Positions 10,649 to 40,571 of a DNA stretch of 40,571 nucleotides are shown in pieces. This DNA comes from an uncultured Bacteroidota bacterium (GTDB lineage: Bacteria > Bacteroidota > Bacteroidia > Chitinophagales > Saprospiraceae). The notes beneath the pieces are model-generated. The model did no database searches and was not told the DNA's origin. It was given only the letters and a program-made list of their open reading frames with translations. The stretch covers positions 1 through 40,571 of the forward strand of contig CAIZLM010000124.1 of assembly GCA_903933805.1 (NCBI GenBank), written 5' to 3'. The stretch's first letter is position 1. Every line of letters starts with the position of its first letter. Position numbers and translations under genes: made by a program.

Positions 10649-10810
10649 CAACTGGTTAGCGTGGTCGCGTCTGAGACAAAAAAGAGGCCATTTTTTGCCA
10701 GACGAAGCGGATTTTTGTAGGCCGTAGCATCGCTACGGTCAAAAAAATCTGCGAAGTATGGCGGAAAATGGGCCTTTTTTGACCAGACAGCGTGCCACCT
10801 AACCAGTTAC
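10649..10810 (+). repeat. Dispersed palindromic element, full copy A
   Basis: About 162 bp. It starts with the L terminus (AACTGGTTAGCGTGGTCGCG, then TCTGAGACAAAA) and ends with the R terminus (CAGACAGCGTGCCACC, TAACCAGTTAC). The middle is a second palindrome centred on CCGTAGCATCGCTACGG flanked by GCGGATTTTT and AAAAATCTGC. The 8-mer AATTTAAG stands immediately on both sides (10641-10648 and 10811-10818), as expected for a target duplication, although the right-hand one also precedes copy B. Confidence 0.9.
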
Positions 10811-10818
10811 AATTTAAG

Positions 10819-10890
10819 CAACTGGTTAGCGTGGTCGCGTCTGAGAAAAAGAGGTCAATTTTTGTCTCAGACGCGATCCCCAGCCAGTTA
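10819..10890 (+). repeat. Dispersed palindromic element, short copy B
   Basis: About 72 bp, 8 bp after copy A. Both halves are of L type: GCGTGGTCGCGTCTGAGA on the left and TCTCAGACGCGATCC on the right, ending CAGCCAGTTA. The middle part of the full form is missing. It lies about 60 bp upstream of blh. Confidence 0.85.
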
Positions 10891-10952
10891 AAAATCAAAT
10901 ATTTGCAACCAATCAAATCATCAAACTCATTTTAATCACAGCCTACTTGAAA

Positions 10953-11894
10953 ATGTTGGATTTCCACGACAAAATAATTTACTGGAAGGTGGTTGGCATC
11001 ACCTGGTTTTTTGGTGCCATGGGGTGGTATAATGCGGATTTATTGTTCAAGATACAGTATCCACTGCTGGCAATATTGGTATTGCTTCTGGGACTACCCC
11101 ATGGTGCCACTGATTTTTTGTTGTACAGGCGGATGAGAGGTCCTGCTGTACAGCCGTTGCAGGTGATTCAGTTTTTTATGTTTTATTTGCTGACTGTGTT
11201 TGGTTACTTGGTTTGCTGGGTGTATCTCCCGTTATTTTCCCTCATACTCTTTCTGGCGGTGTCTGTGTATCATTTTGGTCAGTCAAATGGACAATATCTG
11301 CAACTGCCGCGTTGGAAGTCCTTCATCCTGTACGTTTCTTGGGGATCTTTTTTGTTGAGTGGGGCTTTGCTTTGGCACTGGGAGGAGAGCAAGGTAATTG
11401 TTGAACAACTTTTGGGTCTTACACTGGAGTGGTCGGCCAGTTATTGCTGGAAAATACCGTGGTTTTTGCTGCTGATTAACGTGTTTTTGCTGCTGGTTTT
11501 CATTGGCCGCACAGAGTCGAAAAAATTATGGCGAGAACTCACAACCCTGTTGGTGCTGTCGTTCATGCTCTATAGTACGCCGTTACTGGTCGGATTTACC
11601 TTGTATTTTACCCTTTGGCATTCCTTGGGTTCGCTACTTCATCAGGTAAGGTTTATTAGAAGCCAGTGGCCCCGGTTTACGTATGCACAGTATTATCGAC
11701 AGGCAGCACCGTACACCCTTTTGGCTGTTATAGGTTTATTTTGTTTGGTGCTCTGCCAATCCTATTTTTTTCCAAATTTATCGGTAATCAGTTTGTTTTT
11801 TGTGATGATTGCCTGCGTAACGCTGCCCCATATTTTTCTGATAGAGGCAAGTTATATGCAAGGCAATATCGGCTCAAACGATGAAGATGTGTAA
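10953..11894 (+). CDS. blh: Brp/Blh family beta-carotene 15,15'-dioxygenase
   Basis: 313 residues from ATG 10953; an in-frame TTG six bases earlier is less likely. A multi-helix membrane protein with the four conserved histidine motifs of the family: GLPHGATD (H50), SVYHFGQSN (H107), TLWHSLGSLLHQ (H223, H230) and TLPHIFLIE (H293), which bind the catalytic iron. It cleaves beta-carotene in the middle to give two retinal molecules, the chromophore for the rhodopsin encoded just upstream. No carotenoid synthesis genes (crtE/B/I/Y) are in the window, so beta-carotene must come from elsewhere. No perfect -7 box was found between copy B and the start. Confidence 0.93.
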   Translation: MLDFHDKIIYWKVVGITWFFGAMGWYNADLLFKIQYPLLAILVLLLGLPHGATDFLLYRRMRGPAVQPLQVIQFFMFYLLTVFGYLVCWVYLPLFSLILFLAVSVYHFGQSNGQYLQLPRWKSFILYVSWGSFLLSGALLWHWEESKVIVEQLLGLTLEWSASYCWKIPWFLLLINVFLLLVFIGRTESKKLWRELTTLLVLSFMLYSTPLLVGFTLYFTLWHSLGSLLHQVRFIRSQWPRFTYAQYYRQAAPYTLLAVIGLFCLVLCQSYFFPNLSVISLFFVMIACVTLPHIFLIEASYMQGNIGSNDEDV

Positions 11895-11934
11895 CCCAAG
11901 TTAGGTGGTTACGAAGATGTTTGAGTAACTGACA

Positions 11935-12111
11935 TTACGCCCCTCCCCAAAATGGAATTAAGAAACAATGTGCAGAACCCGTAACAGGGTCTTCTAAAAT
12001 TGATGCTTGTGGCGTAAAAAACCTTGAAACGAAACCACAGTTATCTCCAATTGCTGTTACAATTACTCCTCTAGGGTTAAGATTTATTTGGTCAAATAAT
12101 TGCCGGTCAAT
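11935..12111 (-). pseudogene. PhzF-family protein fragment, truncated at both ends
   Basis: Read on the minus strand, about 58 codons encode a typical C-terminal PhzF stretch: NPRGVIVTA, then FVSRFF, then EDPVTGSAHC and IPFWGG, after which a stop codon cuts the protein short of its normal end. On its 5' side the homology stops exactly where repeat copy C begins (12112). Intact PhzF proteins are about 260-300 residues, so this is about one fifth of a gene. It sits between the convergent blh and T9SS genes and is most likely non-functional. Confidence 0.75.
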
Positions 12112-12227
12112 GTAACTGGTTAGGAGGTCACGTCTGAGACAAAAAATAGCCACTTTTTCGACTCAAATACGACCTCCTAACCAGATATAACTACGTTGTC
12201 TGGCAAAAAAAGGCCACGTAACTGGTT
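12112..12227. repeat. Dispersed palindromic element, short copy C plus an extra partial end
   Basis: GTAACTGGTTAGGAGGTCACG at 12112 and TACGACCTCCTAACCAGATA to 12188 form a short L-L copy. It is followed by a partial R-like segment (GTTGTCTGGCAAAAAAAGGCC) and another ACTGGTT end up to 12227. The composite touches the PhzF fragment on one side and ends 3 bp before the stop codon of the T9SS gene on the other. Confidence 0.8.
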
Positions 12228-12230
12228 GTC

Positions 12231-15200
12231 TTACATTTTGACCACCGCGCTTGACCAAACACTTTTTCCATCGCTCACACGGACAAAATACATGCCCGAT
12301 GGGAATCCATCCAGTGAAATGGGTTGGGTAAATTGGTCTGATACATTGGCAAGGGTTGTTTCCGCGTGGATGATGCGGCCGTGTACGTCGCGGATACTAA
12401 TTTCCAGCGGTATTGCTGCAAATCCTCGAAGGTCGATCATTACCTGTTCGCTTGCCGGGTTTGGATAAACGCTGATAAACTTGGCGCCGTCTGTTTCTTC
12501 TGTAGCTGTGCCAATTTGAGCGATCACAAAATCAAACTGTACGCCACCGCCGAAGTCGGGGTTAAATGCTTTGGCAGGTACCAAGGTGCCACTGGCGAGT
12601 GGACGCATCAAGTTGACTGATCCGCTTCCATTTTCCGGGAAAAACCAAAAAGAAAGGCCATCGTTGCTGGCATCGATAAAGTCTAGGGTATAACAACCAT
12701 TGGGAAGATTCAGTAAATCTAAGTAGCTGGTGTTGGACAACATGTCGCTGCGGCTCATGACGGTGTTGCCACCGGCGTCTTTGATGGTGTAGCTGTAGTC
12801 GCTGCCGATGTTGTTGGTATTGGTTCGGATGCGGAGTGGGTTTGGGAAGCTAAACACCTGTGCCGGGGTGAAAGTCATGTTGGCTTGGTTGTTGGCCGAT
12901 TCTTCGTCTGGTTGGCCATTGACCGCTGCAATTTGGACTTGAAAAATTTTATTGGCCTGACTGGTTGTCCAGAAGGTGGTTGACAACACCGGTAGTGCCA
13001 CTTCTGTCTGAGCGTCTGGTTCGAGATTACCTGACCAAGTGTAGGTTTCTGCGGTGCCGCCTTGTACCAGGTATTCAAAGCGCATGGTATGGATGGTGGA
13101 GGAACCGTTGTTTTTTACCAAGATCAGGGGGGTACTGCATGCCGGGTTGATGCGGGCGTATTCCACTTGTTTGTTGTTGGGGCGCATGACGGTTTCAATG
13201 GAGGCGTCCAACGCGTGGTTATAGGCTCCATAGCTCACCAACTGATTGGATACCAAGTAGTTGGACTCAGATAATGCTGACCCGTTGAGACCGTAGTCAA
13301 GGGTGACGGTGCTTCCGGGGGTTGCGTCGAGGTTGAATTCATGGACATCAGTGGCCATGCCGGGGCACCAACCTGCTCTGTCGAACACCCAAGTGCCTCC
13401 TTGTGGGTAAATCGGGTTTTTCCCGCAGTATTTCCACACATCGTACTGGAATTCTTGGTCGCCGCCATTGACATTCAGGTAGTGCTGCTGGGCAATGAAT
13501 TCGCCGTTTTGCCCGTGGCCGGTCACGGCAGATCGCAGTTTGAAATGTTGTGCAATGTTACTCAAGGCCATTGTGCGTGGTTCGAACAACCGGTCGTCCA
13601 GAATGTCTTGGTACCAACCCCTGCCTTCCGGCCAAATATTTTGGATGTTCAAAACGGGTTTAGCAGGTTTTCCCGCCACGAAAATAAATTTCAGGTCCAG
13701 GTCTTCCTGCCATTCGCCGCCAAATTCCACGGACAACACTTTGTTGCCTTGCAGAATGGGCCCAAAATCGGAAACATCAAAAGTGAATACTTTGCCGGCT
13801 GCACCGAGACTGAGTCCGTTGCCATAAGGGGTGACGAGCGAAAGCAACTCGAATCGCGCGGCTCTTTTGGCGTAATAGGTGAGGTTTTGGATTAAAATGG
13901 TGTTGTCAGGGGTAACTTGCACGTGGTCAACGATTGTGTTTGTTTCTGGATCCAGTACGTTCATGGCGCCAGCAGGAAAGTAATAACTGGTGTCAAGCAC
14001 GACCAGATCGGTTCCTGAAACGCCATAATGAAGTACTTTCTGTTCAGCGTTTTGCACGGAGTCGAGCACCAAAATGGTCTGATCCGCCACGTTGAGGTCG
14101 CCTTGAAGGAAGGTCGTGTTTGGGCGCAGGGTGGAGCTGGTAAAATTTTTATAGAGGTCTTTGCCCCTTGTTGGGAGCCAATTGGGCAGGATAACGGAGG
14201 CTGTGGCTGCGGCGGGGCTGTGGTCAGTTGCCAAAAATCCAGCACCTTCATCAAAGGTGTAGTAAGCCCTCAAATGGGCAAAGTCAGGATGGTCTGAGGT
14301 TATTTTTTTTCTCATCCAAGCTGCAATGGTGGCTTCGTCAAGTTCTTTGTCCCATATTTGGAATTCATCAATTTTCCCGTAGTACGTGAGGGAATGGTCG
14401 GCAGAACCACCCAGTATTAGGTTTTTAAAATCGATAGGGATGCTTTTTCCGGTTCCGCTGTGCCACAAAACGCCGTTGAGGTAAATTTTCATGGAGCCGG
14501 TAACCGTATTTTTGGTGAAAGCCCAGTGGTTCCACCGGCCTTCAAACGCCAGGGTGTCAGCGGCTTTGTCGATGCGATCGTAACCGCCGCCAGCGCCGCC
14601 ACAATCCCAATAGACGGAACCGTTGCTCCAGGGCAGATGTACATTGATCGCGCGTGCACCGGAAGCATTGTTGCCTTCGAAAATGGTGGAATTGACCGGG
14701 AGGATGGTGGCATCACCGAAATTCCAAAGTGACACGGTGATTTCAGTGGAAATACCGGCCAATGGTACTGTTGGAACATCTACATAACTGCCACGCCCAA
14801 AATTCAGGGCGTTGTCGGGTTGGCTGTTGACCAACGCAGCCGGGTACCCGGCATCGGTTGCTTGTACGGCTGCCGTACTGCCACCGGGTGCGTTTGAACT
14901 CCACTCTACCAGCAGGTTAGAGGTGCCGTCCCAGGCGAATGGCTGGTAAAAGGGGAAGGTTATTGGACCCGCGAAGTTGACCGGTTTATTTTGAAAAAAC
15001 ACATCTGTGAAGCCCGACAAGTCAGGATTTTCTGCCGAAAGTGATGTTTTCGACGTATTTTTGACACTGATTTTGAAGAAGCCAAGTGCCGATCCTGCTT
15101 GATTCAATGCCAAAGTCAGGCCGTGGATGTTTCCCGCTTGCAGCCCTGCCGCCGTGAGTTCAGTCGCTGTGAACAAAAATTGACTTTTTTGAAGGCCGGA

Positions 15201-15635
15201 GCCTTCCGACAGCGTCAGGTCTTCGCTGCCGTTGCCAACGGTACTTTCTACGGGATTTCCGCCGGAAAATTCGGTTTGGTGTTGTAAAAATCGGTAGTAG
15301 GTGAAGGTCGGGTTGTTGGCATATTCGAAGCTATTGCCGGAAAAACCGGAAATGACGTATTCCGGGAAAGTTTGCCGGAAGGAATCTATGCGGGAGGGGT
15401 CGGTCACAAAGGTGTTGCAACTGTAATCCCATTCACCACAAGTGGCGCCATTGCGGCAACGCATGTTGTACTGAAGATAAATTTTGCGCCAACTTTGAGC
15501 TGGGTTATCCGGAAAATGGAAAGTATCGCTCCGGAAATTGTCGGTCCAGCGGATGGTTTGAACCACCGTGGTGTCTTGTCCGACCGCTATTCCGGCGAAA
15601 AAAAAAGTGATCAGGAGGAGTATTGTGTACTTCAT
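12231..15635 (-). CDS. T9SS-secreted PNGase F-like protein with LamG domain
   Basis: 1134 residues from ATG 15635, chosen because it begins a clean signal peptide (MKYTILLLITFFFAGIAVGQ); a longer frame upstream has none. Near residues 50-75 is a cysteine-bearing block (CRNGATCGEWDYSCNTF) typical of Bacteroidota peptide-N-glycosidase F-like proteins. A LamG/concanavalin A-like fold fits about 280-435 (WNHWAFTKN, KIYLNGVLWHSG, KIDEFQIWDKELDEATI). The PNGase F-like C-terminal region fits about 590-860 (SAVTGHGQNGEF, WKYCGKNPIYPQGGTW, DRAGWCPG). The last ~80 residues are a type A T9SS sorting domain (VYPNPASEQ, GFPSGMYFVRV). Predicted to be exported to the cell surface or medium; possibly removes N-glycans or binds glycoproteins. 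Activity is not certain. Confidence 0.85.
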   Translation of the reverse strand: MKYTILLLITFFFAGIAVGQDTTVVQTIRWTDNFRSDTFHFPDNPAQSWRKIYLQYNMRCRNGATCGEWDYSCNTFVTDPSRIDSFRQTFPEYVISGFSGNSFEYANNPTFTYYRFLQHQTEFSGGNPVESTVGNGSEDLTLSEGSGLQKSQFLFTATELTAAGLQAGNIHGLTLALNQAGSALGFFKISVKNTSKTSLSAENPDLSGFTDVFFQNKPVNFAGPITFPFYQPFAWDGTSNLLVEWSSNAPGGSTAAVQATDAGYPAALVNSQPDNALNFGRGSYVDVPTVPLAGISTEITVSLWNFGDATILPVNSTIFEGNNASGARAINVHLPWSNGSVYWDCGGAGGGYDRIDKAADTLAFEGRWNHWAFTKNTVTGSMKIYLNGVLWHSGTGKSIPIDFKNLILGGSADHSLTYYGKIDEFQIWDKELDEATIAAWMRKKITSDHPDFAHLRAYYTFDEGAGFLATDHSPAAATASVILPNWLPTRGKDLYKNFTSSTLRPNTTFLQGDLNVADQTILVLDSVQNAEQKVLHYGVSGTDLVVLDTSYYFPAGAMNVLDPETNTIVDHVQVTPDNTILIQNLTYYAKRAARFELLSLVTPYGNGLSLGAAGKVFTFDVSDFGPILQGNKVLSVEFGGEWQEDLDLKFIFVAGKPAKPVLNIQNIWPEGRGWYQDILDDRLFEPRTMALSNIAQHFKLRSAVTGHGQNGEFIAQQHYLNVNGGDQEFQYDVWKYCGKNPIYPQGGTWVFDRAGWCPGMATDVHEFNLDATPGSTVTLDYGLNGSALSESNYLVSNQLVSYGAYNHALDASIETVMRPNNKQVEYARINPACSTPLILVKNNGSSTIHTMRFEYLVQGGTAETYTWSGNLEPDAQTEVALPVLSTTFWTTSQANKIFQVQIAAVNGQPDEESANNQANMTFTPAQVFSFPNPLRIRTNTNNIGSDYSYTIKDAGGNTVMSRSDMLSNTSYLDLLNLPNGCYTLDFIDASNDGLSFWFFPENGSGSVNLMRPLASGTLVPAKAFNPDFGGGVQFDFVIAQIGTATEETDGAKFISVYPNPASEQVMIDLRGFAAIPLEISIRDVHGRIIHAETTLANVSDQFTQPISLDGFPSGMYFVRVSDGKSVWSSAVVKM

Positions 15636-15671
15636 GGATGAAAGTTGAAGGTGTAATGGATAGGAAGGCAG

Positions 15672-15679
15672 CAAATATA
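15672..15679 (-). promoter_or_regulatory. -7 box for the T9SS protein gene
   Basis: On the minus strand the sequence reads TATATTTG, an exact TAnnTTTG match. The predicted start near 15665 gives a leader of about 30 nt before the chosen ATG at 15635 and lies downstream of the longer alternative start at 15674, which supports the shorter protein. Confidence 0.55.
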
Positions 15680-15785
15680 GCTTATTCAGCCTATTCCCCC
15701 GTTGAATGTGGTTCTAAACCTTTAAATATTTGATTTATACACGTCGATGCCATGTTTCGTTGGCTCTGACAATGAAACATAAAAC

Positions 15786-16612: not shown

Positions 16613-16774
16613 TAACTGGTTAGGAGGCACGCTGTCTGGCCCAAAAGTGGTCATTTTCCGCCATACTTCTCAGATTTTTTTGACCGTAGCGCTGCTACGG
16701 CCTACAAAAATCCGCTTCGTCTGGCCCAAAATGGCCGATTTTTTGTATCAGACGCGACCACGCTAACCAGTTAC
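16613..16774 (-). repeat. Dispersed palindromic element, full copy D (reverse orientation)
   Basis: About 162 bp, R end first (TAACTGGTTAGGAGGCACGC, TGTCTGGCCC), L end last (CAGACGCGACCACGCTAACC, AGTTAC), with the central CCGTAGCGCTGCTACGG palindrome. It fills almost the whole gap between two convergent genes: 8 bp after the MOSC stop and 2 bp before the TPR gene stop. GTTTAT occurs at both edges (16608-16613, 16775-16780). Confidence 0.9.
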
Positions 16775-20196: not shown

Positions 20197-20359
20197 GTAA
20201 CTTGTTAGCGTGGTCGCGTCTGAGACAAAAAAGTGGCCATTTTTTGTCAGGCGAAGCAGATTTTTGTAGGCCGTAGCAGCGCTACGGTCAAAAAAATCTG
20301 CGAAGTATGGCGGAAAATGGGCCTTTTTGAGCCAGACAGCGTGCCACCTAACCAGTTAC
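20197..20359 (+). repeat. Dispersed palindromic element, full copy E
   Basis: About 163 bp: GTAACTTGTTAGCGTGGTCG at the left, the central CCGTAGCAGCGCTACGG palindrome, and GCGTGCCACCTAACCAGTTAC-type right end. It starts one base after the amidohydrolase stop and ends 18 bp before the FkbM gene start. Confidence 0.9.
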
Positions 20360-21223: not shown

Positions 21224-24200
21224 TCATTTTTTCCAGATACCCCCAATCCCTACAGCATACAATTTCTTATTGAGTGCCGGAACATCTTTTTCCAGTATTT
21301 CTGTTGCAGTTGCTTTCAAGACCGACCATTCAGCATCCAGGACTTTTTTTAGCTCAAAGGAGGGGTTGTTTACCACAGGAATATCGCTTTCGGTCTGGTT
21401 GATGAGAAAAATATAGTTGGCTGAAAATTTGTTCGGGAAGTTCTCCACATCGTCGTAAGCTTTCGATTTTCGTTGCACCATGGCTTCATCCCATGTCTTC
21501 ATTTTTTTTACGAGGGCAGCCCCTTCCATTTGAATCGACTGGAAGGAAGGATCTGTAGAAATTGTACCGAGTAATTGGACCAATTGTTCCCTTTTGGCGA
21601 AAATAGTATTCACCAATTGGTGCATTTGGGTGAACTGATTTTCCATGTCCAACATCACCTGATGGTAGGCTTTGTAATTCTCTATGCCATTGGAATACAA
21701 TGGGTTGGATAATATTTCTGCCGAGGTAGAAACCTGCTGGCCACCCAATTTCAAGTTAAATGTATATTTACCAGGAGGGGCTTTGTGCCCCCCATAGCTG
21801 CATTCATAATAAACGTCTGGAATGCCAGGCAGGGTAGGGTAGCGCATATTCCAAACGAATCTATTGAGCCCGTTGTGTGTTGTAAGTGCCGGATCTTCCG
21901 AAGGACCACCGTCCCATTTTTTATACAGGCTATCTTTTTGGGAGCTGAAACGGCGAACCAAATTGCCGGCCTCGTCTTTGATTTCAAGGGAAATGGTGGT
22001 GTCCTTGGATAAGCCGGCCAAATGATAATACAAGACAATGCCATTCGCAGGATTTACACCTGCGGTAGCAGTAGAACCGGTGAAATCGTCGTCTGTTACA
22101 TCCAATTCACTTTTTCCATTGGCCAGAAAAGCATTTTCAGGTGAATAAATGGTGGGTTCCTTGCGGTCTTTTTTGTACTGGCCTATCACATTTACATCAT
22201 CCAAGATCCAAAATGATCTTCCAGATGTGGCAGCAATCAAATCACCTTGGTGTATCTTTAGATCCGTAATGGGGGCTATCGGTAAATTTAATTGGAAAGA
22301 TGACCAAGATGCCCCGCCATTCCAAGAAATATAGAGGCCCAATTCAGTTCCGGCAAACAGTAGGTCTTTTTGTTGCACATCTTCCCTGACTACCCTAGTA
22401 AATGCATTGTTGGGAATACCGGTTGTTATTTTCACCCAGCTTTTGCCATAATCGGTGGTTTTGTACAGGCCAGGGGTATGGTCGTTGAATTTGTAGCGGG
22501 TTGTAGCAATGTAGGCTGTTGCTTTGTCGTGGGGGGACACCTCAATGGCATTGATCAGGCATTCCTGCAAACCTTTAGGGGTCACATTTACCCAGTTTTT
22601 GCCGCCGTCTTTTGTGATATGCACCAATCCGTCGTCACTGCCGGTCCAGATAACGCCTTTTTCATGTGGAGATTCCACGATATAGGCCAGTGTCCCATAA
22701 TTTTCTGCTCCGACGGCTTCATTGGTGTAGGGGCCGCCGCCTTTTCCTTGTTTTTCTTTTTCGTTGCGGGTTAAATCGGGTGAAATTTCACGCCATGTTT
22801 TGCCCATATCACTGGTGCGCAACACATATTGTGCGCCATGGTAAAATGTTCCGGGCTCGTGTTTCGACCATACGATCGGAGCATTCCAGTTGAAGCGGTA
22901 CTTGATGTCTTTGGCATCGCGACCCAAATACTGAATGGGAGCTGCCATAATGTTGGTTGCGGCGAGCGCTTTCGTATCCAGCACCTCAATGGTACCTTGG
23001 TAACTGCCGCCAACCACATACCGTGGGTCGTCTGGATTAAAGGCCAAAAAAGCACTTTCACCACCCGCGGAATAGGTCCAGTTGTCGGTGGTAATGTGGC
23101 CGCTTCCAAAAGCCCGGTGGGCAATTGACACAGAGGAATTGTCTTGCTGACCTGCATAAATTCTGTATGGAAATTGGTTGTCCACGTTGATTCTATACAG
23201 TTGAGCGGTGGGCATATTATCTTGGGAACTCCAGGATTTTCCGGCGTTGAAGGTAATGGCAGCGCCCCCATCATCGGCGATAATCATGTTTTTGGAATCC
23301 TTTGGATTGATCCAGAGATTGTGGTAATCGCCATGTGTATTGGAAATGTCTTCCCAGGTTTTACCGCCATCGGTGGATCGAAGGGCGGGCGCACTCATCA
23401 CGTACAGGGTATTGTCGTTTAAGGGATCCGTAAACAATTCAATATAATACCAAGCCCGTTGAATCAATCGGTGGTCTTTGGATACCAGGGACCAGTTTTT
23501 CCCAGCATTGTTGGAAACAAACAAGCCTCCTGCTTCTTTTTCTGAATCACTTTCTATCAATGCATACAACTTTTCGGCATTGGAGCGACAGACAGCAACG
23601 GCCATTTTACCCATTTCTTTCGGCAGCCCGTCTTCCATTTTGTCCCAATGTTCGCCGGCATCCGTTGATTTGTACAACCCACTGCCGGGACCGCCACTGA
23701 TTACCTTCCAAGGCAGACGCCCATGTTCCCACATCGCGGCGTACAGGATGCGTGGATTGTTCATGTCCATAGACAATTCAGCGCAGCCGGTTTTGTCGTC
23801 TACAAAAAGCACATTTTTCCAGGTTGTACCACCATCGGTGGATTTGTAAATACCCCGTTGGGCGGATTGGCTGTAAAGTGCGCCCTGAGCGGCTACAAAA
23901 ACGGTATTGGGATCTTTAGGGTCTATAACAATACGGGCAATGTGTTGTGTCAGTTCAAGTCCGATGTGTTTCCAAGTTTTACCGGCGTCGGTTGATTTAT
24001 AGACCCCATCGCCATGGTGTGTCATCACGCCCCTAACGGCATGTTCGCCCATCCCTACGTAAATGACATTGGGATCGTTTTCAGCAACGGCCACGGCGCC
24101 CACGGATCCTGTTTTGAAAAAACCATCTGAAATATTGGACCAGTTGATGCCCATATCCTCCGTTTTCCACAGTCCGCCGCCAGTGGTGCCCATATAATAG

Positions 24201-24388
24201 GTGTGGACATCGCTTACAACCCCAGTGGCTGCTACAGAACGTCCCCCTCGGAAGGGCCCAATGTTGCGCCATTTAAGGGGTTTGAAATAAACGTTCAGGT
24301 CGGTTACCGAAGAATCCTTTTTTGTTTGGGCCTCAGCATTAAAAAATGCGGGCATTAAACCCATGATCAGCAGCAAATATTTATGCAT
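21224..24388 (-). CDS. Exported Asp-box (VPS10/BNR-like) beta-propeller protein
   Basis: 1054 residues with a signal peptide ([21 protein letters not shown]). At least eight Asp-box motifs of the S-x-D-x-G-x-x-W type are spread over residues ~90-700 ([45 protein letters not shown] and others), so two sialidase-like or sortilin-like propellers are likely. The C-terminal ~330 residues hold a beta-rich part ([26 protein letters not shown]) and a helical tail. No T9SS sorting domain is seen, so it is probably periplasmic. Such proteins are often called glycosyl hydrolases, but no catalytic residues can be assigned. Confidence 0.85.
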
Positions 24389-24657: not shown

Positions 24658-24735
24658 CAACTGGTTAGGTGGCACGCTGTCTGGCCCAAAAAGGCCCATT
24701 TTTTTGTCTCAGACGCGACCACCCTAACCAGTTAT
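24658..24735 (-). repeat. Dispersed palindromic element, short copy F (reverse orientation)
   Basis: About 78 bp: R half first (CTGGTTAGGTGGCACGCTGT, CTGGCCC), L half last (GTCTCAGACGCGACCACC, CTAACCAGTTA). The central palindrome is absent. It lies in the 510-bp gap between the propeller gene and katG, which otherwise holds only the propeller promoter and the inverted repeat at 24744-24884. Confidence 0.88.
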
Positions 24736-24898: not shown

Positions 24899-27537
<2,639 letters not shown>

Positions 27538-29302: not shown

Positions 29303-29439
29303 ACTAACTTAGGCTGCTCCCTGTTTGGCCCATCAAGGCCCATTTTTCCAGACTAGTGCGCCCATTTTTTAGCTCTAGTCCAGATATAGTCTATAAAAAT
29401 TGCTTTTTTGATCCAGAAACGACCACCCAGCCAGTCACG
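29300..29439 (-). repeat. Dispersed palindromic element, decayed long copy H
   Basis: GTAACTAACTTAGGCTGCTCC and TGTTTGGCCC at the left, CAGAAACGACCACCCAGCC and AGTCAC at the right, about 140 bp. The overall R-to-L order and length match the full form, but the central palindrome is scrambled. Confidence 0.65.
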
Positions 29440-29551: not shown

Positions 29552-29619
29552 TTGATTGGTAATAGGTTTGCTAGCACGCTGTCCGGCCTGTTCCGGTCGC
29601 AAACACCCAACTGGTTACC
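29552..29619. repeat. Probable relic of the dispersed element
   Basis: GCTAGCACGCTGTCCGGCC followed by GTCGCAAACACCCAACTGGT recalls the R half (GGCACGCTGTCTGGCC) and a terminal AACTGGTTAC. The rest of the 29260-29795 gap (apart from copy H) shows nothing I can support as a gene. Confidence 0.4.
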
Positions 29620-30072: not shown

Positions 30073-30114
30073 CGCAACCAGTCGTTTAGGTCGCGTCTAA
30101 GACAATTAAGTGGC
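30073..30114 (+). repeat. Relic of the element's left end
   Basis: GCAACCAGTCGTTTAGGTCG and CGTCTAAGACAATTAAGTGGC follow the L half (GCAACTGGTTAGCGTGGTCG, CGTCTGAGACAAAAAAGTGGC) with scattered changes. It begins right behind the mscL stop codon; the R half is missing. Confidence 0.6.
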
Positions 30115-30121
30115 TCATTGG

Positions 30122-30152
30122 GCAACTCATTGTGCAACTCATTGTACAATGA
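30122..30152. repeat. 12-bp tandem repeat and 14-bp palindrome upstream of gpmI
   Basis: GCAACTCATTGT occurs twice in direct tandem (30122-30133, 30134-30145). The second copy runs into the perfect palindrome TCATTGTACAATGA (30139-30152), and degenerate further copies flank it. It is 46 bp upstream of the gpmI ATG, in a position suited to a regulator site, but this could also be slippage. Confidence 0.45.
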
Positions 30153-33090: not shown

Positions 33091-33251
33091 GTAACTGGTT
33101 AGGTGGCACGCTGTCTGGCCCAAAAAGGTCCATTTTCCGCCATATTTCGCCCATTTTTTTGACCGTAGCAGCGCAACGGTCAAAAAAATCCGCTTCGACT
33201 GGCAAAAAATGGCCACTTTATGTCTCAGACGCAACCACGCCAACCAGTTAC
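33091..33251 (-). repeat. Dispersed palindromic element, full copy J (reverse orientation)
   Basis: 161 bp with symmetric ends GTAACTGGTTAGG / CCAACCAGTTAC, R half first, and the central GACCGTAGCAGCGCAACGGTC palindrome. GTTTATAG (33083-33090) and GTTTTTAG (33252-33259) stand immediately outside the ends, a candidate 8-bp target duplication with one mismatch. Confidence 0.9.
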
Positions 33252-35072: not shown

Positions 35073-35167
35073 TTCGACAGGAACATAGGGTGTTTTTTCA
35101 GAGACGGGAAACCTATAATCGTGAAATTTCATGGAAGTGTACATAGCTGTGCAATCCCTTTTTACTG

Positions 35168-35328
35168 TTAACTGGTTAGGCGGCACGTTGTCTGGCCCAA
35201 AAAGGTTCGTTTTCTGCCACACTTCGCGCATTTTTTTGACCGTATCGATGCTACCGCCTGTAAAATCAGTTTCTATTGGCAAAAAATAAGCACTTATTTG
35301 TCTCAGACGCGACCACCTAACCAGTTAC
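35168..35328 (-). repeat. Dispersed palindromic element, full copy K (reverse orientation)
   Basis: 161 bp, TTAACTGGTTAGGCGGCACG at the left and GCGACCACCTAACCAGTTAC at the right, with a partly decayed central palindrome (GACCGTATCGATGCTACCG). TACTGTTA occurs at both edges (35163-35170 and 35326-35333), overlapping the element termini. Confidence 0.88.
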
Positions 35329-35331
35329 TGT

Positions 35332-35339: not shown

Positions 35340-35346
35340 CGTTATT

Positions 35347-36813
35347 GTGTTTGAACTCGATCCAGCCAAGATACTCCATTTGTTCGTCTATGACCCAGAC
35401 GCTAAGTTGCTGTTCAACAGTGGACTCTTTATTTTTTTATTTTTTGGGTTCATGGCAGTCTACCGGTTGTTGTTGCCACACCAGCGTTTGCGCATACTTT
35501 GGGTAACCCTTTTTTCCCTCTATTTTTACTATAAGTGTGCGGGTATATATTGGCTGTTACACGTTGTCATCGTCGTAGTTGATTACCATTTGGCGCATTG
35601 GATGGAAAATGCCGCCACGCGAAGGGAAAAAACTGCCTTGTTGGCAACCAGTTTGGTGGTAAATTTGGGGATGTTGGTATTTTTCAAGTACAACATCTAT
35701 TCTGAATTGTGGAGTGAGCTTTCTGGAGCGCCCTTTGATCCTTCGAAGGTTTTCCTACCGGTCGGCATTTCATTTTTTACATTTCAATCGTTGAGTTACA
35801 CCATAGATGTGTACCGTGGGGAGCTAAAATCATTGGATAACATCCTTGATTACGCATTTTTCGTCACATTTTTTCCGCAAATGGTTGCTGGCCCGATCGT
35901 GCGTGCAGCGGATTTTATTCCACAAATACACAAGGAGCCCCTCGTAACCCGCGAAGATTTTGGTCGGGGAATATTCTTGATTGGTACCGGGTTGTTTAAG
36001 AAGGCTGTCATTTCAGATTATATCAGCGCCAACTTTGTTGACCGAGTGTTTGATTCTCCGTTACAATACACGGGCATGGAAAACTTGTTTGCAGTGTACG
36101 GATACGCGATGCAGATTTATTGCGACTTCAGCGGGTATTCCGACATGGCCATTGGCATTGCCCTACTTATAGGATTCAAATTTCCCATCAACTTTGACTC
36201 GCCCTATCAGTCAACCAGTATTACTGAATTTTGGCGCAGGTGGCACATTTCTTTGTCCACATGGTTGCGCGATTACCTGTACGTACCATTGGGTGGTAAC
36301 CGCAAAGGTCGCTGGCGAACCTACCTGAACCTGATGCTGACGATGCTGTTGGGAGGCCTTTGGCATGGAGCGGCGTTTCGTTACATCATTTGGGGCGCAC
36401 TACACGGGTTGGCCTTGGTGGTTGAGCGATTATTTAAAGAGAATGTGTCCACTGCGCCGGGTCAGTTTCGCACGTTGTTGGGTGGTTTTTTCACCTTTCA
36501 TTTTATATGTTTTTGTTGGATTTTCTTTCGTGCGCAAGGCATGGAAAATGTGCAAAACATGCTTAGTCAGATATGGTATAACTTTGAGCCACAGTTTTTA
36601 ACCTCGTTTTTGGACGGATATGCCGGGGTGGTGTTCTGGGTCTCACTCGGGTACTCGTTACACTTCATGCCATCCAATTGGGAAATATGGGCTCAAAAGA
36701 CGGTGGTTGACGCCCCCTTATTTGCCAAAGTCTTGGTCACATTGCTCATCATCATGCTGGTCATGCAAATAAAATCCGCAGAGGTACAGCCCTTTATTTA
36801 TTTTCAATTTTAG
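35347..36813 (+). CDS. MBOAT-family O-acyltransferase (AlgI/DltB-like)
   Basis: 488 residues. GTG 35347 is used because the first ATG would remove the first membrane helix. About eleven membrane segments. Family signatures: FLPVGISFFTFQSLSYTIDV, FFPQMVAGPIVRA, the conserved EFWRRWHISLSTWLRDYLYV (H300) followed by PLGGNR, and GGLWHGAAFRYIIWG with the catalytic-type histidine H340. AlgI-like MBOATs move acyl groups, usually acetyl, across the membrane to exopolysaccharides. The SGNH/AlgJ-X-type partner often encoded next door is absent, so the acceptor is unknown. The stop is 11 bp from the stop of the convergent lipoprotein gene. Confidence 0.9.
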   Translation: MFELDPAKILHLFVYDPDAKLLFNSGLFIFLFFGFMAVYRLLLPHQRLRILWVTLFSLYFYYKCAGIYWLLHVVIVVVDYHLAHWMENAATRREKTALLATSLVVNLGMLVFFKYNIYSELWSELSGAPFDPSKVFLPVGISFFTFQSLSYTIDVYRGELKSLDNILDYAFFVTFFPQMVAGPIVRAADFIPQIHKEPLVTREDFGRGIFLIGTGLFKKAVISDYISANFVDRVFDSPLQYTGMENLFAVYGYAMQIYCDFSGYSDMAIGIALLIGFKFPINFDSPYQSTSITEFWRRWHISLSTWLRDYLYVPLGGNRKGRWRTYLNLMLTMLLGGLWHGAAFRYIIWGALHGLALVVERLFKENVSTAPGQFRTLLGGFFTFHFICFCWIFFRAQGMENVQNMLSQIWYNFEPQFLTSFLDGYAGVVFWVSLGYSLHFMPSNWEIWAQKTVVDAPLFAKVLVTLLIIMLVMQIKSAEVQPFIYFQF

Positions 36814-36824
36814 TGCAAATCGCA

Positions 36825-38135
36825 TTACAATATACGTTCTTTACCCAAATACCCCGCACGGGCCTGCCACAATACATCTGCGGCATTTAGGTAATGCTGT
36901 ATAATTACTTCATAAGACAGCACTTTTTCATAGGACTCCGCCCGGGCGGTTACGCCATCATTGAAATCATAATTGCTCAAGGGATGGTACAGGTCTGCCA
37001 ATGGCGCCGGTATATCGGGGAGGCGGTAATCGAGGATGCCATTCCGCGGTTTTGTCAACACTTCCCACGAGATGTTGAGATGAATACCGTATCCATTTCG
37101 GGTGCGGGTGAACGCCAATAGATCAAAATCGCCGAGGCATTGGACAGCGAACAGGCGTTTGTCGGACAAACTTGTTGGCGCCAGGTCAAAACCAGGTTTG
37201 GGCAAAGTAGGTGGCATAGAACTGTAAAAGTGATCACTGAGGTAGGTATAACCTCCTGCGTCAGATGCTGTTCCCCGCAATTGAAGCCTGAACCCGTTGT
37301 AAGGCCGATTGGCATTGAAAAGGTCGTTGTTGACAGGCTCGAAAATTTCCACCTTATCCAGGAATGGAACAAAGGTTCCGGGCGGACGAAGGGGCTGGCT
37401 TAAAGGCAAAAACTGAAGTTTTGCCGTGTCAACGATGCCATCCACTTGATATTTCCAATCCGCAACGAATGGAAAATTGAGCGTGAGGGGAGGGGCAAAA
37501 ATGGGCAACATAAGGTTTACGTCCAGTGTATTTGCCTCTACCGTTTCGCCACCGATGTTGTTGAAACGGACAAATCGCCAAAAAGGATTGCCATCCACGA
37601 GCACCCGAATCCAGCATTGTCCGGTGTGGTAGCACCAATAGTCGCCGGTGAAGTTGTTGCTTGCTTCCGGCTTCGTAATCGCATAGGCATCCGGAACCAC
37701 GATGCTGTCCAGCGTATTCATGCCGGTGAGTGAAAACTGGACAGATGAAGCCCGCTGAAAAACAGAATTTTGGAGATGTATGGATTGCCGGCTTCCTAGG
37801 TTTGTGTACGTTGAAAGGCTCAGAAACGTATCGCGAACACCAGTTCCTGGCGCGTCCAGGGTGGTTATTTTTACGACAGTACAGTCGAAGTTATCCGCGG
37901 GGGTACTGTTGGGCACCTGTAAAAGAATGGTGTCATTTTCGGGCACCCAACGGAAGGCTTTGGTGGCTCCCGTGTTTGGGTCGCTGACGAAAACAGCAAA
38001 ACGCGCATTCAAAGCATCGAAATCATTCCGCACCAAGAGTTCAAAGACTGGCGCTGGTTCTGGAGACACTTGGTTTTTTTCGCAGGAAAAAAAAGAAAAA
38101 ATGATAAAAAACGCGATCGATCCTCGGATATTCAT
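36825..38135 (-). CDS. Lipoprotein of unknown function
   Basis: 436 residues from ATG 38135; a GTG nine bases earlier is possible. The N-terminus MNIRGSIAFFIIFSFFSC is a lipoprotein signal with the acylated cysteine at about C18, followed by EKNQVSPEPAP. The rest is beta-rich without a motif I recognise; a KPEASNNFTGDYWCYHTGQC stretch may hold a disulfide. It resembles the general style of Bacteroidota surface lipoproteins but not a named family I can defend. It stands alone on the minus strand between MBOAT and the LOG-family gene. Confidence 0.75.
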   Translation of the reverse strand: MNIRGSIAFFIIFSFFSCEKNQVSPEPAPVFELLVRNDFDALNARFAVFVSDPNTGATKAFRWVPENDTILLQVPNSTPADNFDCTVVKITTLDAPGTGVRDTFLSLSTYTNLGSRQSIHLQNSVFQRASSVQFSLTGMNTLDSIVVPDAYAITKPEASNNFTGDYWCYHTGQCWIRVLVDGNPFWRFVRFNNIGGETVEANTLDVNLMLPIFAPPLTLNFPFVADWKYQVDGIVDTAKLQFLPLSQPLRPPGTFVPFLDKVEIFEPVNNDLFNANRPYNGFRLQLRGTASDAGGYTYLSDHFYSSMPPTLPKPGFDLAPTSLSDKRLFAVQCLGDFDLLAFTRTRNGYGIHLNISWEVLTKPRNGILDYRLPDIPAPLADLYHPLSNYDFNDGVTARAESYEKVLSYEVIIQHYLNAADVLWQARAGYLGKERIL

Positions 38136-38327
38136 AGCAAACACGGTTGATGTTTCTTTTATTCAACGAAAAGAACTGCGTATTGTTTTACGGTTGTGGA
38201 ACGTGAAATAGCGCCCTAAAAACACATTCTTAAAAAAAACATCCCCTACATGTAAGGTATGACGGATATTCGCCCCTTCAAATGACCCCAATATCCACTT
38301 TTCCATCTTTTAGAACGACTAATTATC

Positions 38328-38891
38328 ATGAAATCAATTGCAGTTTTTTGTGGCGCCAACAAGGGCAACAAACCTTGTTTTGAAGAAGCCGCGACCGAAT
38401 TGGGGCAGGTACTTGCTCAACGTAGTATCCATGTAGTTTTTGGCGGCGGAAGTGTTGGGTTGATGGGTGTTTTGGCCGATTCCGTGTTGGCCAATCATGG
38501 TTCTATAACGGGTATCATCACCCATCAATTGAACGGCCTCGAACTTGGTCACACCGGCGTAAAAGACATGATCGTGGTAGAGACGATGTCAGAACGCCGG
38601 AAGTTGTTGATTGAAGGTACGGATGGTATCATCACCCTGCCGGGGGGCTACGGCTCTCTCGATGAACATTTTGAAGCGCTTACCCTCGCACAATTGCTAC
38701 AGTATCAGCGCCCGATTGGCCTGCTGAATGTGAACGGATATTACGAGCCACTGATTCAAATGCTGGATGTGATGGTGGAGAACGGGTTTCTTCGACCACA
38801 AAACAGGCACCTGTGTATCGTCTCCGATAATATTGCCGATTTATTGGACAAAATGAAACGTTATGAGCACCGCGCACTCGAAAAATGGTAG
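38328..38891 (+). CDS. LOG-family nucleotide 5'-monophosphate phosphoribohydrolase (TIGR00730)
   Basis: 187 residues. Family signature PGGYGSLDEHFE at about 105-116 (PGGxGT/S-x-x-E) with MSERRKLL at about 87-94 and a Rossmann-type start (IAVFCGANKG, VFGGGSVGLMG). In plants and bacteria such enzymes release free base from cytokinin or purine nucleoside monophosphates; in bacteria the role is often nucleotide salvage or stress. About normal length for the type I group. No neighbour hints at cytokinin synthesis. Promoter not clear. Confidence 0.9.
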   Translation: MKSIAVFCGANKGNKPCFEEAATELGQVLAQRSIHVVFGGGSVGLMGVLADSVLANHGSITGIITHQLNGLELGHTGVKDMIVVETMSERRKLLIEGTDGIITLPGGYGSLDEHFEALTLAQLLQYQRPIGLLNVNGYYEPLIQMLDVMVENGFLRPQNRHLCIVSDNIADLLDKMKRYEHRALEKW

Positions 38892-38962
38892 AAAGTGGTT
38901 AAAGTTCTTTTAAAATCCCTTTTGGGCGTCGTCAAATGGCCTGTATCCTGTTATGGTATCAC

Positions 38963-38970
38963 TACATTTG
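38963..38970 (+). promoter_or_regulatory. -7 box of the thioredoxin-like gene; decides the start codon
   Basis: TACATTTG is an exact TAnnTTTG match. The expected transcript start near 38977 lies downstream of the farthest in-frame ATG (38953), so translation should begin at 38995 or 39007. Confidence 0.5.
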
Positions 38971-38994
38971 TCCACTGAAAACCATCCGATTGAA

Positions 38995-39765
38995 ATGAAT
39001 TTGGCTATGCGTATCTTATCTTCGACTTGTATTCTTGTTCTGGTTGCCGCTTCTTGCGTTGTAGCACAAACGTCGCCAAAGTCCGTTGGAAAAGCTACGG
39101 CAGTTACGCCGTTGCCCAAGGCCGCAGCGCCCGCCCAGCCGCGTTCAGCGCCGCCAGTTGCGGCTGTCACAACAACGTCACGTGGAGGAGAACTGAGTCC
39201 CTCGCAATACTCCCTGCGCAACAGCGCGACTGCCCAACCTGCCAATAACCAGTCATTATCGCCAAGACCTGTCAAAAAGACTTCGCCAGTTAAAATGGTG
39301 CAAAAAGTTACCGTGCATTGGATGTCCTTGGAACAGGCGCTAGAAAAAAGCAAGCTCGAAAAACGCAAAATATTTGTGGACGTTTATACCGACTGGTGTG
39401 GGTGGTGCAAGCACATGGACAGTACCACATTTCTCAATCCGGCTGTCGCAAGCTATCTCAACGACCATTATTACGCCGTTAAATTCAACGCGGAGCAAAC
39501 CCAGGATATTTTTTTTAAAGACAAAGTGTACCGCTTCCAGAAAAATGGCAGCCGCGGTTACCACGAATTGGCGGCACTTTGGCTCAACAATCGCCTGTCA
39601 TTTCCAACCGTTGTGGTATTGGACGAAAATCTAACACTTATACAGCCCGTTCCGGGGTACCAAGATGCCGGAAAAATGGAAGCCATCATCAATTATTTCG
39701 GATCCGATAGCCACAGAAGAGTGCCTTGGGAGACGTATGAGAAGGCTTTTACGCCGCATCATTGA
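38995..39765 (+). CDS. Exported thioredoxin-fold protein with WCGWC site
   Basis: 256 residues from ATG 38995, with ATG 39007 as alternative; both give a signal peptide (ILSSTCILVLVAASCVVAQ). A linker of about 80 residues rich in Ala, Pro, Ser and Thr leads to a thioredoxin-like domain with TDWCGWCKHMD (C135, C138) and a cis-proline region FPTVVVLDE. This form (DUF255/thioredoxin_7-like) acts in disulfide exchange in the periplasm. The last tail (RRVPWETYEKAF) is short. The linker suggests it is set away from the membrane or a partner. Confidence 0.87.
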   Translation: MNLAMRILSSTCILVLVAASCVVAQTSPKSVGKATAVTPLPKAAAPAQPRSAPPVAAVTTTSRGGELSPSQYSLRNSATAQPANNQSLSPRPVKKTSPVKMVQKVTVHWMSLEQALEKSKLEKRKIFVDVYTDWCGWCKHMDSTTFLNPAVASYLNDHYYAVKFNAEQTQDIFFKDKVYRFQKNGSRGYHELAALWLNNRLSFPTVVVLDENLTLIQPVPGYQDAGKMEAIINYFGSDSHRRVPWETYEKAFTPHH

Positions 39766-39850
39766 GTGTCAGCCGGACGGTGTAAACAGTCAGAATAATG
39801 CGCTTGGAAATATTTAATATTGAAGCGCTACTAGTGATATACCAACAAGG

Positions 39851-39882
39851 AAAGGCCGCCAAGGATTACCCGGGCGGCCTTT
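39851..39882. terminator. Bidirectional terminator between the thioredoxin-like gene and rplS
   Basis: Perfect 10-bp stem AAAGGCCGCC (39851-39860) / GGCGGCCTTT (39873-39882), 12-nt loop, with T-rich arms on both strands, placed 18 bp beyond the rplS stop. A weaker GCGCTT/AAGCGC stem lies upstream at 39800-39838. Confidence 0.75.
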
Positions 39883-39900
39883 CAATACTCAAAACCAGCC

Positions 39901-40272
39901 TTAGCGGTTGGCAGAAGAGAATTTCAGTTCTTTAATACGCGCTTTTTTACCCACCAGACCACGGAGGTAGAATAGACGGGCGCGACGCACTTTACCGCGT
40001 TTTACGACTTCAATGGCTGCAATGTTGGGATTGGAGAACGAAAAAATACGTTCTACGCCTACACCGTGAGACATTTTGCGGACGGTAAATGATTTGGTAA
40101 GGCCATGGCCTTTAATTTGTAGAACATCACCACGGTAATCTTGCTCGCGGCTTTTATCGCCCTCCACAATATTGTAAGTCACAACGATCGTGTCTCCTGT
40201 TTTGAATGCAGGGAGTTTCGACTTCGTTAGCAGTTGGTCATGTACAAACTGGATTGCTTCCAATTCTTTCAT
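39901..40272 (-). CDS. rplS: 50S ribosomal protein L19
   Basis: 123 residues from ATG 40272; an upstream extension of 16 codons is dropped because L19 begins with the AIQFVHDQLL helix. Typical L19 core: FKTGDTIVVTYNIVEG, RDYRGDVLQIKG-type beta strands, TVRKMSHGVGVERIFSFSNP and RRARLFYLRGLVGKKARIKE. It stabilises the 30S-50S interface. It is not next to trmD/rimM/rpsP as in many bacteria. Confidence 0.97.
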   Translation of the reverse strand: MKELEAIQFVHDQLLTKSKLPAFKTGDTIVVTYNIVEGDKSREQDYRGDVLQIKGHGLTKSFTVRKMSHGVGVERIFSFSNPNIAAIEVVKRGKVRRARLFYLRGLVGKKARIKELKFSSANR

Positions 40273-40309
40273 TGTATCAAAATTTGAGTGTCTTTCTAAT
40301 AAAGAGGCG

Positions 40310-40317
40310 CAAAGGTA
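40310..40317 (-). promoter_or_regulatory. -7 box of rplS
   Basis: The minus strand reads TACCTTTG, an exact TAnnTTTG match and the commonest form for Bacteroidota housekeeping genes. Leader about 30 nt to ATG 40272. Confidence 0.6.
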
Positions 40318-40448
40318 CACCCACTATATTCAAAAAAAAAATCTAGAGATAAAAAAACGATTCAAATCTTGTCTGCTTGTTGGCAACCCCGGTTGCTTTT
40401 GCTGCGTCAACCCAATATTGGGCCATTCAGGTCGGTTTTAATAAAAGA

Positions 40449-40525
40449 TCTACCCATTCAGCTTGTCGCTTCTAAGATGCAAAAATGGCCACTCTTTGCC
40501 AGACAGCGTGCCACCTAACCAATTA
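40449..40525 (+). repeat. Dispersed palindromic element, decayed short copy L
   Basis: The R end is well kept (CCAGACAGCGTGCCACC, then TAACCAATTA). The L half is worn (GTCGCTTCTAAGATGCAAAA against GTCGCGTCTGAGACAAAA). It follows the order and length of copy I. Confidence 0.75.
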
Positions 40526-40531
40526 AAAAAA

Positions 40532-40571
40532 GTAACTGGTTAGGTGGCACGCTGTCTGGCCCAAAAAGGCC
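40532..40571 (-). repeat. Dispersed palindromic element, copy M (cut by window end)
   Basis: GTAACTGGTTAGGTGGCACG followed by CTGTCTGGCCCAAAAAGGCC is identical to the R end of copies F and J. It stands 6 bp from copy L, R end to R end. Confidence 0.88.

What the first reader, a model, noticed from the sequence alone, without database searches (positions are those of the whole stretch)
10649..40571. A dispersed palindromic intergenic element family, about 11 copies plus relics in 30 kb
Copies A to M (10649, 10819, 12112, 16613, 20197, 24658, 27431, 29300, 31744, 33091, 35168, 40449, 40532) share GTAACTGGTTA / TAACCAGTTAC ends, an L half (GTGGTCGCGTCTGAGAC) and an R half (CAGACAGCGTGCCACC) that pair over the element. 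All are intergenic. Such density suggests an abundant genome-wide repeat of MITE or BIME/ERIC type. I know of no named family with these ends.
Basis: seen in the sequence. Interest (0 to 1): 0.78.

Follow-up and report, generated by a model that had tools for sequence, protein, structure and literature searches.

The report
Hairpin transposon that swaps its ends
The repeats are tiny non-coding jumping elements, about a thousand per genome by extrapolation, whose folded core is shared by many related bacteria but carries end sequences matching quite different transposases, as if the element survives by changing the machine that moves it.

Summary
All 13 copies are real; the family continues genome-wide (164 hits in 617,813 sampled bases, about 1,100 per genome by extrapolation, 2.9% of bases) and avoids genes (4 of 164 inside, against 77% of random positions). 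It is a MITE, not a REP/BIME: two size classes (about 163 and 78 nt), ends GTAACTGGTTAG...CTAACCAGTTAC, and an 8-bp target duplication (29 of 91 exact, shuffles 0.5). IS66-type transposase genes with the same tip, none of them seen intact, occur in same-genus genomes and as remnants here.

The unexpected part: the inner ~110 nt is shared by elements in 40 of 298 genomes of the order (a floor) and a few beyond it, but inside quite different ends. IS66-type tips (GTAA..., 8-bp duplication) and IS5-type tips (GAG..., exact 3-bp TTA/TAA duplication in 23 of 24) enclose the same core at nearly constant length. An IS5-type element with a matching tip sits in one such genome. The hairpin covaries strongly (65 of 73 pairs). 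Best reading: one old non-autonomous lineage that changes tips and so changes transposase. What selects the core is unknown; a 2:1 G.T excess over A.C between families, absent among this genome's copies, hints at selection on one folded strand.

The parts
10649..10810 (+). copy A, long form; TSD AATTTAAG at 10641-10648 and 10811-10818
   Evidence: nhmmer 192.6 bits; flanks read
10819..10890 (+). copy B, short form, head-to-tail with A across the 8-nt AATTTAAG
12112..12187 (+). copy C, short form with two L-type ends (end conversion)
16613..16774 (-). copy D, long form; flanks agree in 6 of 8 positions
20197..20359 (+). copy E, long form; used as the DNA query
24658..24734 (-). copy F, short form; flanks agree in 7 of 8 positions
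27434..27495 (-). copy G, decayed short form
   Evidence: 24.7 bits, E 1.1e-5
29309..29435 (-). copy H, decayed long form
   Evidence: 40.8 bits
31744..31822 (+). copy I, short form
   Evidence: 74.6 bits
33091..33251 (-). copy J, long form; flanks GTTTATAG / GTTTTTAG, 7 of 8
   Evidence: gene start probably downstream
35169..35328 (-). copy K, long form
   Evidence: 146.6 bits
40463..40525 (+). copy L, short form, left end missing
   Evidence: 40.9 bits
40532..40571 (-). copy M, cut by the contig end
   Evidence: 36.7 bits
20223..20334 (+). conserved core in copy E (model R1 positions 1-111); likewise 10674-10785 +, 16637-16748 -, 33116-33226 -, 35193-35303 -
   Evidence: R1 bits 115.7, 114.7, 108.9, 104.4, 81.2; A, D, E and J were in the model's alignment, K was not
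   Evidence: short model E 0.00095 for 1223-1249
12191..12233 (-). relic
   Evidence: E 0.0014
29559..29618 (-). relic, weak
   Evidence: E 0.0057
30088..30138 (+). relic of an L end
   Evidence: E 7e-5

Best explanation
The repeats are non-autonomous DNA transposons (MITEs) of ~163 nt, with a ~78-nt internally deleted form, moved by a single-ORF IS66-type transposase that recognises GTAACTGGTTAG and cuts AT-rich targets with an 8-bp stagger. SHOWN by sequence: tips, the 8-bp duplication, IS66 genes with the same tip in same-genus genomes and remnants here, intergenic placement, no orientation preference. Beyond this genome, the ~110-nt core belongs to one old lineage whose members carry different tips (IS66-type with 8-bp duplications; IS5-type with 3-bp TTA/TAA duplications; others) at a nearly constant total length, so the element has changed transposase more than once. 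INFERRED: that these transposases move it (no assay); that a tip change enters at one end and is copied to the other, because the element is a palindrome whose ends can template each other (three elements with converted ends were seen). INFERRED, unproven: the folded core is kept because one strand must fold (as RNA or single-stranded DNA) at some step of the element's own propagation, not because the host uses it.
For: 8-bp duplication: 29 of 91 exact and 18 of 91 with 7 of 8; shuffled flanks mean 0.48, max 4; 0 to 7 exact at each other length from 3 to 12. Density and placement: 164 hits in 40 stretches; 4 of 164 in genes against 77% at random. Same-tip IS66 genes: G025, G009, G020, G016 and remnants in G000. 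Core in 40 of 298 genomes of the order, G000 included. Cores without IS66-type tips against a profile built from IS66-tipped cores only: 34 of 34 exceed the best of 680 pairing-preserving shuffles. IS5-type tips: exact 3-bp duplication 23 of 24; matching IS5-type element in the same genome (L236, G292; TSD TTA; PF13340 + PF01609). The AGACTT tip class needs at least 3 changes on well-supported branches of the core tree. Converted ends: L314 and 2 of 81 own elements. Covariation 65 of 73 pairs, score 0.517 against 0.172 shuffled and at most 0.151 slid. The core is absent from 16 loci around IS66 and IS5-type genes (best 18.4 bits, E 0.098).
Against: No intact IS66 gene with exactly this tip was seen anywhere: G025's is deleted, G009's is split, G020's and G016's are cut by contig ends, G000's are remnants. 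PF03050 was absent from 5 of 7 genomes checked that have GTAA-tipped elements, and G067's IS66 has another tip than its MITE. Of 30 PF01609 loci examined (40 matches), only one in G292 had the tip of its own genome's MITE exactly. Core-tree branches are mostly weak (119 columns, 28 of 83 inner branches open, several long end branches including G265), so the number of tip changes is uncertain. Part of the tip diversity inside the IS66 type could be gradual drift. Mobility was not tested. The strand-fold idea gets no support from copies within this genome (G.T 110, A.C 119).
Confidence: 0.8

Rival explanations
1. Host-selected regulatory or non-coding RNA hairpin (as proposed for ERIC or NEMIS; recalled), spread once by transposition and now kept for its effect on neighbouring transcripts.
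For: Strong covariation; forward strand folds better in 56 of 58 loci, some redundant, and 20 of 21 farther ones.
Against: Own copies decay without strand bias (G.T 110, A.C 119, 22 compensated cells in 66 copies); no preference for gene orientation (++33, --37, +-33, -+30); about half of the sampled hits fit the short, core-less model better (80 of 164).
Confidence: 0.12
2. Compensatory changes come from correction of one palindrome arm by the other (template switching), with no selection on the fold. This competes only with the strand-fold part of the best explanation.
For: End conversion is seen directly; arms of palindromes are expected to correct each other (general knowledge).
Against: Does not explain the between-family G.T excess (216 against 109 inferred gains), nor conserved unpaired positions and near-constant length.
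Confidence: 0.35
3. REP/BIME-type palindromes moved by a RAYT (Y1 transposase).
For: Short palindromic intergenic repeats in high copy; a GTAG precedes the central hairpin in own copies.
Against: 8-bp and 3-bp duplications, matching DDE transposases; GTAG is not conserved in relatives. No search for Y1 transposases was made.
Confidence: 0.02
4. Independent deletion derivatives of several IS families whose hairpin cores merely look alike because all are AT-rich palindromes.
For: All cores aligned here are hairpins with A and T runs.
Against: 34 of 34 beat 680 pairing-preserving shuffles; a near-identical CATAGCAGCGCTACGG-type stretch recurs; 16 loci around IS66 and IS5-type genes hold no core.
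Confidence: 0.04

Closest known systems
MITEs of bacteria in general, e.g. MITECca01 of Cardinium (PMC9769881, passages read)
   Same: Short, non-coding, inverted-repeat ends, very abundant (there 169 copies, 3.5% of the chromosome), thought to depend on an IS transposase.
   Different: MITECca01 derives from one IS982-family parent and is reported from one strain only; here one core spans many genomes and several tip types.
IS66 family, single-ORF kind (Pfam PF03050)
   Same: GTAA tips, 8-bp duplication, and exact tip matches.
   Different: The MITE shares only ~13-17 bp of tip with the IS; the core is not found in the IS66 loci searched.
IS5-type elements (Pfam PF13340 'IS4/5 family' + PF01609)
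   Same: Tips GAGNNTGTT..., TTA/TAA duplications and a 17-bp tip match in G292.
   Different: Again only the tip is shared.
CMITEs of corals (PMC2872659; abstract and one discussion section read)
   Same: Internal region more conserved between families than the terminal repeats; tandem arrays.
   Different: All CMITE families keep the piggyBac terminal motif, so one transposase superfamily; here duplications of 8 and 3 bp point to different transposases.
ERIC and NEMIS/Correia elements (recalled; listed as MITEs in PMC3733652, passages read)
   Same: Long intergenic hairpins of 100-160 nt; two size classes in Correia (recalled).
   Different: Ends and duplications recalled as TA-type; not compared by sequence here.

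Membership tests
MITE | short non-coding element with terminal inverted repeats | tested here: met
MITE | target site duplication | tested here: met
   8 bp, 29 of 91 exact against 0.48 in shuffles
MITE | autonomous element with the same ends | tested here: inconclusive
   IS66 genes with GTAACTGGTTAG tips in G025, G009, G020, G016 and remnants in G000, but none seen intact
MITE | mobilised in trans | not testable with these tools
   needs an assay
IS66-related non-autonomous element | tips begin GTAA and duplication is 8 bp (recalled for IS66; both observed on IS66 genes here, 5 of 7 G007 copies exact) | tested here: met
IS66-related non-autonomous element | internal sequence derived from the IS | tested here: not met
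   core model R1 finds nothing convincing in 16 loci around IS66 and IS5-type genes (one match, 18.4 bits, E 0.098)
REP/BIME (RAYT-linked) | 20-40 nt palindrome tagged GTAG or CGTC (PMC3733652), no target duplication (recalled) | tested here: not met
   163/78 nt with 8-bp duplication
Known Rfam RNA family | covariance-model match to the core | tested here: not met
   window at gathering score and 11 other loci up to E 1: no match at the core
Named IS/MITE in ISfinder | sequence match | not testable with these tools
   ISfinder not available
Phage- or plasmid-borne repeat | present in phage or plasmid records | tested here: not met
   copy E: no match at E 1e-3 in 50,697 phage and 72,556 plasmid records; no exact 17-mer L-half match in IMG/VR

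The most novel reading that the evidence does not exclude
The core is an independent selfish lineage that outlives its transposases: it moves between unrelated DDE transposase families by exchanging 15-20 bp tips, and one strand of it must fold at a step of its own propagation, as RNA or as exposed single-stranded DNA, which would be new for an element with IS66- or IS5-type ends.
Probability: 0.33. Interest if true: 0.88.

Novelty: new variant of a known kind. Interest (0 to 1): 0.72.

Why it matters
MITEs are usually thought of as derivatives of one parent IS (general knowledge). A single structured core found under IS66-type and IS5-type ends, at near-constant length and across genera, would mean that a non-autonomous element can persist longer than any of its transposases by switching partner. 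That makes two open questions testable: how both ends of a transposon change together, and what the core contributes. In practice the family also makes up ~3% of the sampled part of this genome, and several contigs, including this one, end at or inside copies.

Tried and rejected
REP/RAYT was rejected because of target duplications and DDE partners. The idea that the two full-length IS66 genes of this genome move the MITE was rejected: their tips are GTAAGCCTCCCACGAACC and GTAACTATCCAGCC. A test for strand bias after insertion gave nothing (G.T 110, A.C 119 in 66 copies). Gene-orientation preference: none. Preference for sites next to hairpins: none (joined empty sites mean -19.7 kcal/mol, n 47; random intergenic -20.9, n 300; p 0.20). 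Orthologous empty sites in the genus: not obtained; matches to the two flanks of the one locus tried were 64-76% identical and, in the genomes I compared where both flanks were listed, lay on different contigs. The 19-sequence core alignment misplaced the outer arms of the G022 group, so model R1 has only 12 pairs; a better model was not built. In one search I read L203 and L215 at the wrong place (their loci are cut short); later calls placed the core by profile. The Pfam family tried for non-GTAA genomes (PF01609) gave an exact tip match in G292 only; no partner was found for the AGACTT, AAGTAC or GAACTC tips. Pfam scans of six window genes served only to identify neighbours.
Full report
OBSERVATION. 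The 13 copies exist at the stated places. A profile built from paired-end copies finds all of them, and the tip motif is strongly over-represented in the window (17 against 0.30 expected). The window is a whole contig, C124, of a 4.21-Mb, 336-contig genome, G000. In the whole genome the exact tip 12-mer occurs 597 times against 2 for the reversed control. I sampled 39 stretches plus the window (40 stretches, 617,813 bases; one further stretch, C216, was fetched for an IS and used besides): 164 non-overlapping hits, 84 to the long and 80 to the short model, 2.9% of bases; by extrapolation about 1,100 copies, relics included. Twenty stretches were chosen by contig number, nineteen from contigs that earlier hits had named, so the density is approximate.

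WHAT IT IS. Most paired ends are 77-80 nt (31 of 93) or 161-164 nt (48 of 93) apart. Flanks match over exactly 8 bp: 29 of 91 identical and 18 of 91 with 7 of 8, against a mean of 0.48 (maximum 4) in 1,000 shuffles; at each other length from 3 to 12 there were 0 to 7 exact matches (a few nested pairs share an end). Targets are AT-rich (80% A+T in 47 duplications against 56% in element-free intergenic DNA by my rough gene calls). Four of 164 lie mostly in predicted genes against 77% of random positions. Of 133 copies between two called genes, orientation relative to neighbours is even: 33, 37, 33, 30. Nine neighbouring pairs lie within 30 nt; four have exactly 8 nt between them, among them A and B of the window, where the spacer equals A's target duplication. 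One copy (L082:13735-13813) sits beside a terminator-like hairpin with CCCATTTT on both sides. These are the marks of a MITE.

ITS TRANSPOSASE. GTAA ends with 8-bp duplications recalled IS66. G000 has three IS66 (PF03050) matches; the two full-length genes have other tips. In same-genus genome G025, which has the same MITE, a 1,050-bp IS66 remnant has GTAACTGGTTAGCC at both ends around a 333-aa frame that lacks the first ~120 positions of the Pfam domain. Searching with it found relatives in 9 of 42 genus genomes, G000 and G025 included. Of these, G009 (gene split by an insert, one internal stop), G020 (six fragments, each within 2 nt of a contig end), G016 (one fragment, likewise) and G025 carry GTAACTGGTTAG tips, and decayed pieces with such tips, some with one mismatch, lie in G000 itself. 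No intact gene with exactly this tip was seen. Single-ORF IS66 elements elsewhere have tips GTAAAAACTTAG, GTAACTATTCAG, GTAACTACTCAG; five of seven G007 copies examined have an exact 8-bp duplication. G025 is very probably CANJPT01, a Lewinellaceae MAG (order Saprospirales): contig length 11,676 and the motif position agree.

THE CORE IS SHARED, THE ENDS ARE NOT. A DNA search of 120 relatives found matches in 14 including G000, but many covered only an inner part, e.g. positions 26-132. Reading those loci showed a different tip outside the same core. A model of 19 cores (R1) matched 40 of 298 genomes of the order, G000 included, in 26 of 140 genera; at most 12 candidates per genome were scored, so counts and misses are floors. 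In 395 genomes across the phylum it matched 7 including G000 at E <= 1e-4 with at most 9 candidates scored: five in one family of another order (one of these, G538, is doubtful: weakest score and the only one of 21 loci folding better on the other strand) and one in another class. In this genome all 73 core places (127 matches on both strands) in 41 stretches coincide with the GTAACTGG-type family.

The tips point to different transposases. GTAA tips: 18 elements of four other genomes have 76% identity over 8 bp, 5 of 18 exact, all other lengths from 2 to 10 lower. GAG tips (GAGCATGTTGGGG, GAGTATGTTTAAA, GAGCTTGTTTGG, GAGGCTGTCTTGA): 23 of 24 have an exact 3-bp duplication, TTA or TAA. AGACTTGTTG tips: 6 of 9 exact at 3 bp in G247 (9 of 10 loci scored), 1 of 5 in G008/G023. 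GAACTCATCTTGAC tips in the other order: 5 of 7 at 3 bp. In G292 an 865-bp element with an open frame of 258 codons of IS5 type (PF13340, PF01609) has tips GAGCTTGTTTGGATTTT and GAGCTTGTTTGGGAATT and a TTA duplication; the MITE of that genome begins with the same 17 bases. Three further IS5-type copies with GAGTATGTT tips also have TTA or TAA (L230, L254, L255). G012's MITE tip GTAAAAACTTAGCCAGC equals 17 bases of the IS66 tip in G007, and G059's GTAACTATCCAGCCG equals 15 bases of an IS66 tip in G000. G059 and G012 each hold the core under more than one IS66-type tip. Against this, IS66 was found in only 2 of 7 genomes with GTAA-tipped elements, and one of the two has another tip; PF01609 was found in 7 of 10 other genomes, but of 30 loci examined out of 40 matches only G292's L236 had exactly its own MITE's tip, while L253 of G265 merely holds the MITE itself.

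IS THE CORE REALLY HOMOLOGOUS? A profile built only from IS66-tipped cores (26 rows, 22 nt removed from each end) scored 34 other elements (one per genome, five of them from the phylum search) at 16.8-63 bits; 680 shuffles that keep pairing and composition reached 5.8 at most, so 34 of 34 exceed all. The elements had been found by similarity to R1 or to copy E, and R1 includes some of them, but their tips and duplications, not used in those core searches, lie at the expected distance: of 91 elements from 36 genomes, 74 measure 158-166 nt by automatic end calls; several of the other 17 are ends set a few bases off, and two (L299, L300) measure 185-186 also when checked again. A tree of 87 cores clusters tip classes (13 changes, shuffled 45.1) but needs at least 3 changes for the AGACTT class on well-supported branches; columns are few and some branches, among them G265's, are long. 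Sixteen loci around IS66 and IS5-type genes hold no core.

HOW ENDS MIGHT CHANGE. Both tips must change together. L314 in G012 carries its left end on both sides and 2 of 81 own elements with classifiable ends, one of them copy C of the window, are L-L (79 L-R, 0 R-R). So one end can overwrite the other, as expected of a palindrome. I infer that a new tip enters at one end and is copied across; the first step was not seen.

WHAT THE FOLD MEANS. On 38 diverse elements 65 of 73 pairs change on both sides; covariation 0.517 against 0.172 in shuffles and at most 0.151 when slid. The structure was derived from these sequences, which flatters the paired percentage, less so the covariation. Arm-to-arm correction could produce this without selection. 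The strand asymmetry is harder to explain so: 56 of 58 loci (some redundant) fold better on the forward strand; among 40 representatives G.T exceeds A.C 183 to 87, in 31 of 40 and the reverse in 7 (in the outer 27 nt 60 to 9); parsimony on 79 elements gives 216 against 109 gains (tips there are not strictly homologous). In 66 copies of this genome there is no asymmetry (110 against 119), nor among the 27 that differ least from the consensus (21 against 20). If real, selection acts on the lineages that spread, not on copies after insertion. Rows are related, so this stays a hint.

NOVELTY. Rfam had nothing at the core. Paper searches (PMC open-licence library only, listings read) showed no such family; the nearest precedent is the coral CMITE (abstract and one section read), where all families keep the piggyBac motif. 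As an element the window's repeat is a new IS66-dependent MITE; as a lineage with exchangeable ends it is a new variant of the MITE kind.

Noticed in passing
window 40532-40571 and other contigs (C2, C49, C48, C74, C282): Contigs begin or end at or inside copies of the element, so the family probably broke this assembly; gene order across these gaps is unknown.
   Followed up: partly
window 22428-23996 inside the reading frame 21224-24388 (-): Five ~33-nt degenerate repeats within a 1,054-codon reading frame, probably a repeated protein motif.
   Followed up: no
L031/L101 (G000:C216): An IS66 element with three reading frames, tips GTAAGCCTCCCACGAACCCC and duplication CACCGGGA; not the partner of the MITE.
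   Followed up: yes
L322/L337 (G009:C1): The IS66 element with GTAACTGGTTAG tips is split by a ~769-bp element with ends GTAGTGTCATTTT.
   Followed up: no
L209:2619-2708 (G185): Flavo-1 RNA (RF01705) just above its gathering score (43.7 against 42), about 1 kb from the core element; no overlap.
   Followed up: no
L082:13670-13840: A short copy inserted at the T-run of a terminator-like hairpin; the duplication leaves the hairpin intact. No such preference in general.
   Followed up: yes
L299, L300 (G012): Two core elements with tips 185-186 nt apart instead of ~163; the core may carry an insert.
   Followed up: no
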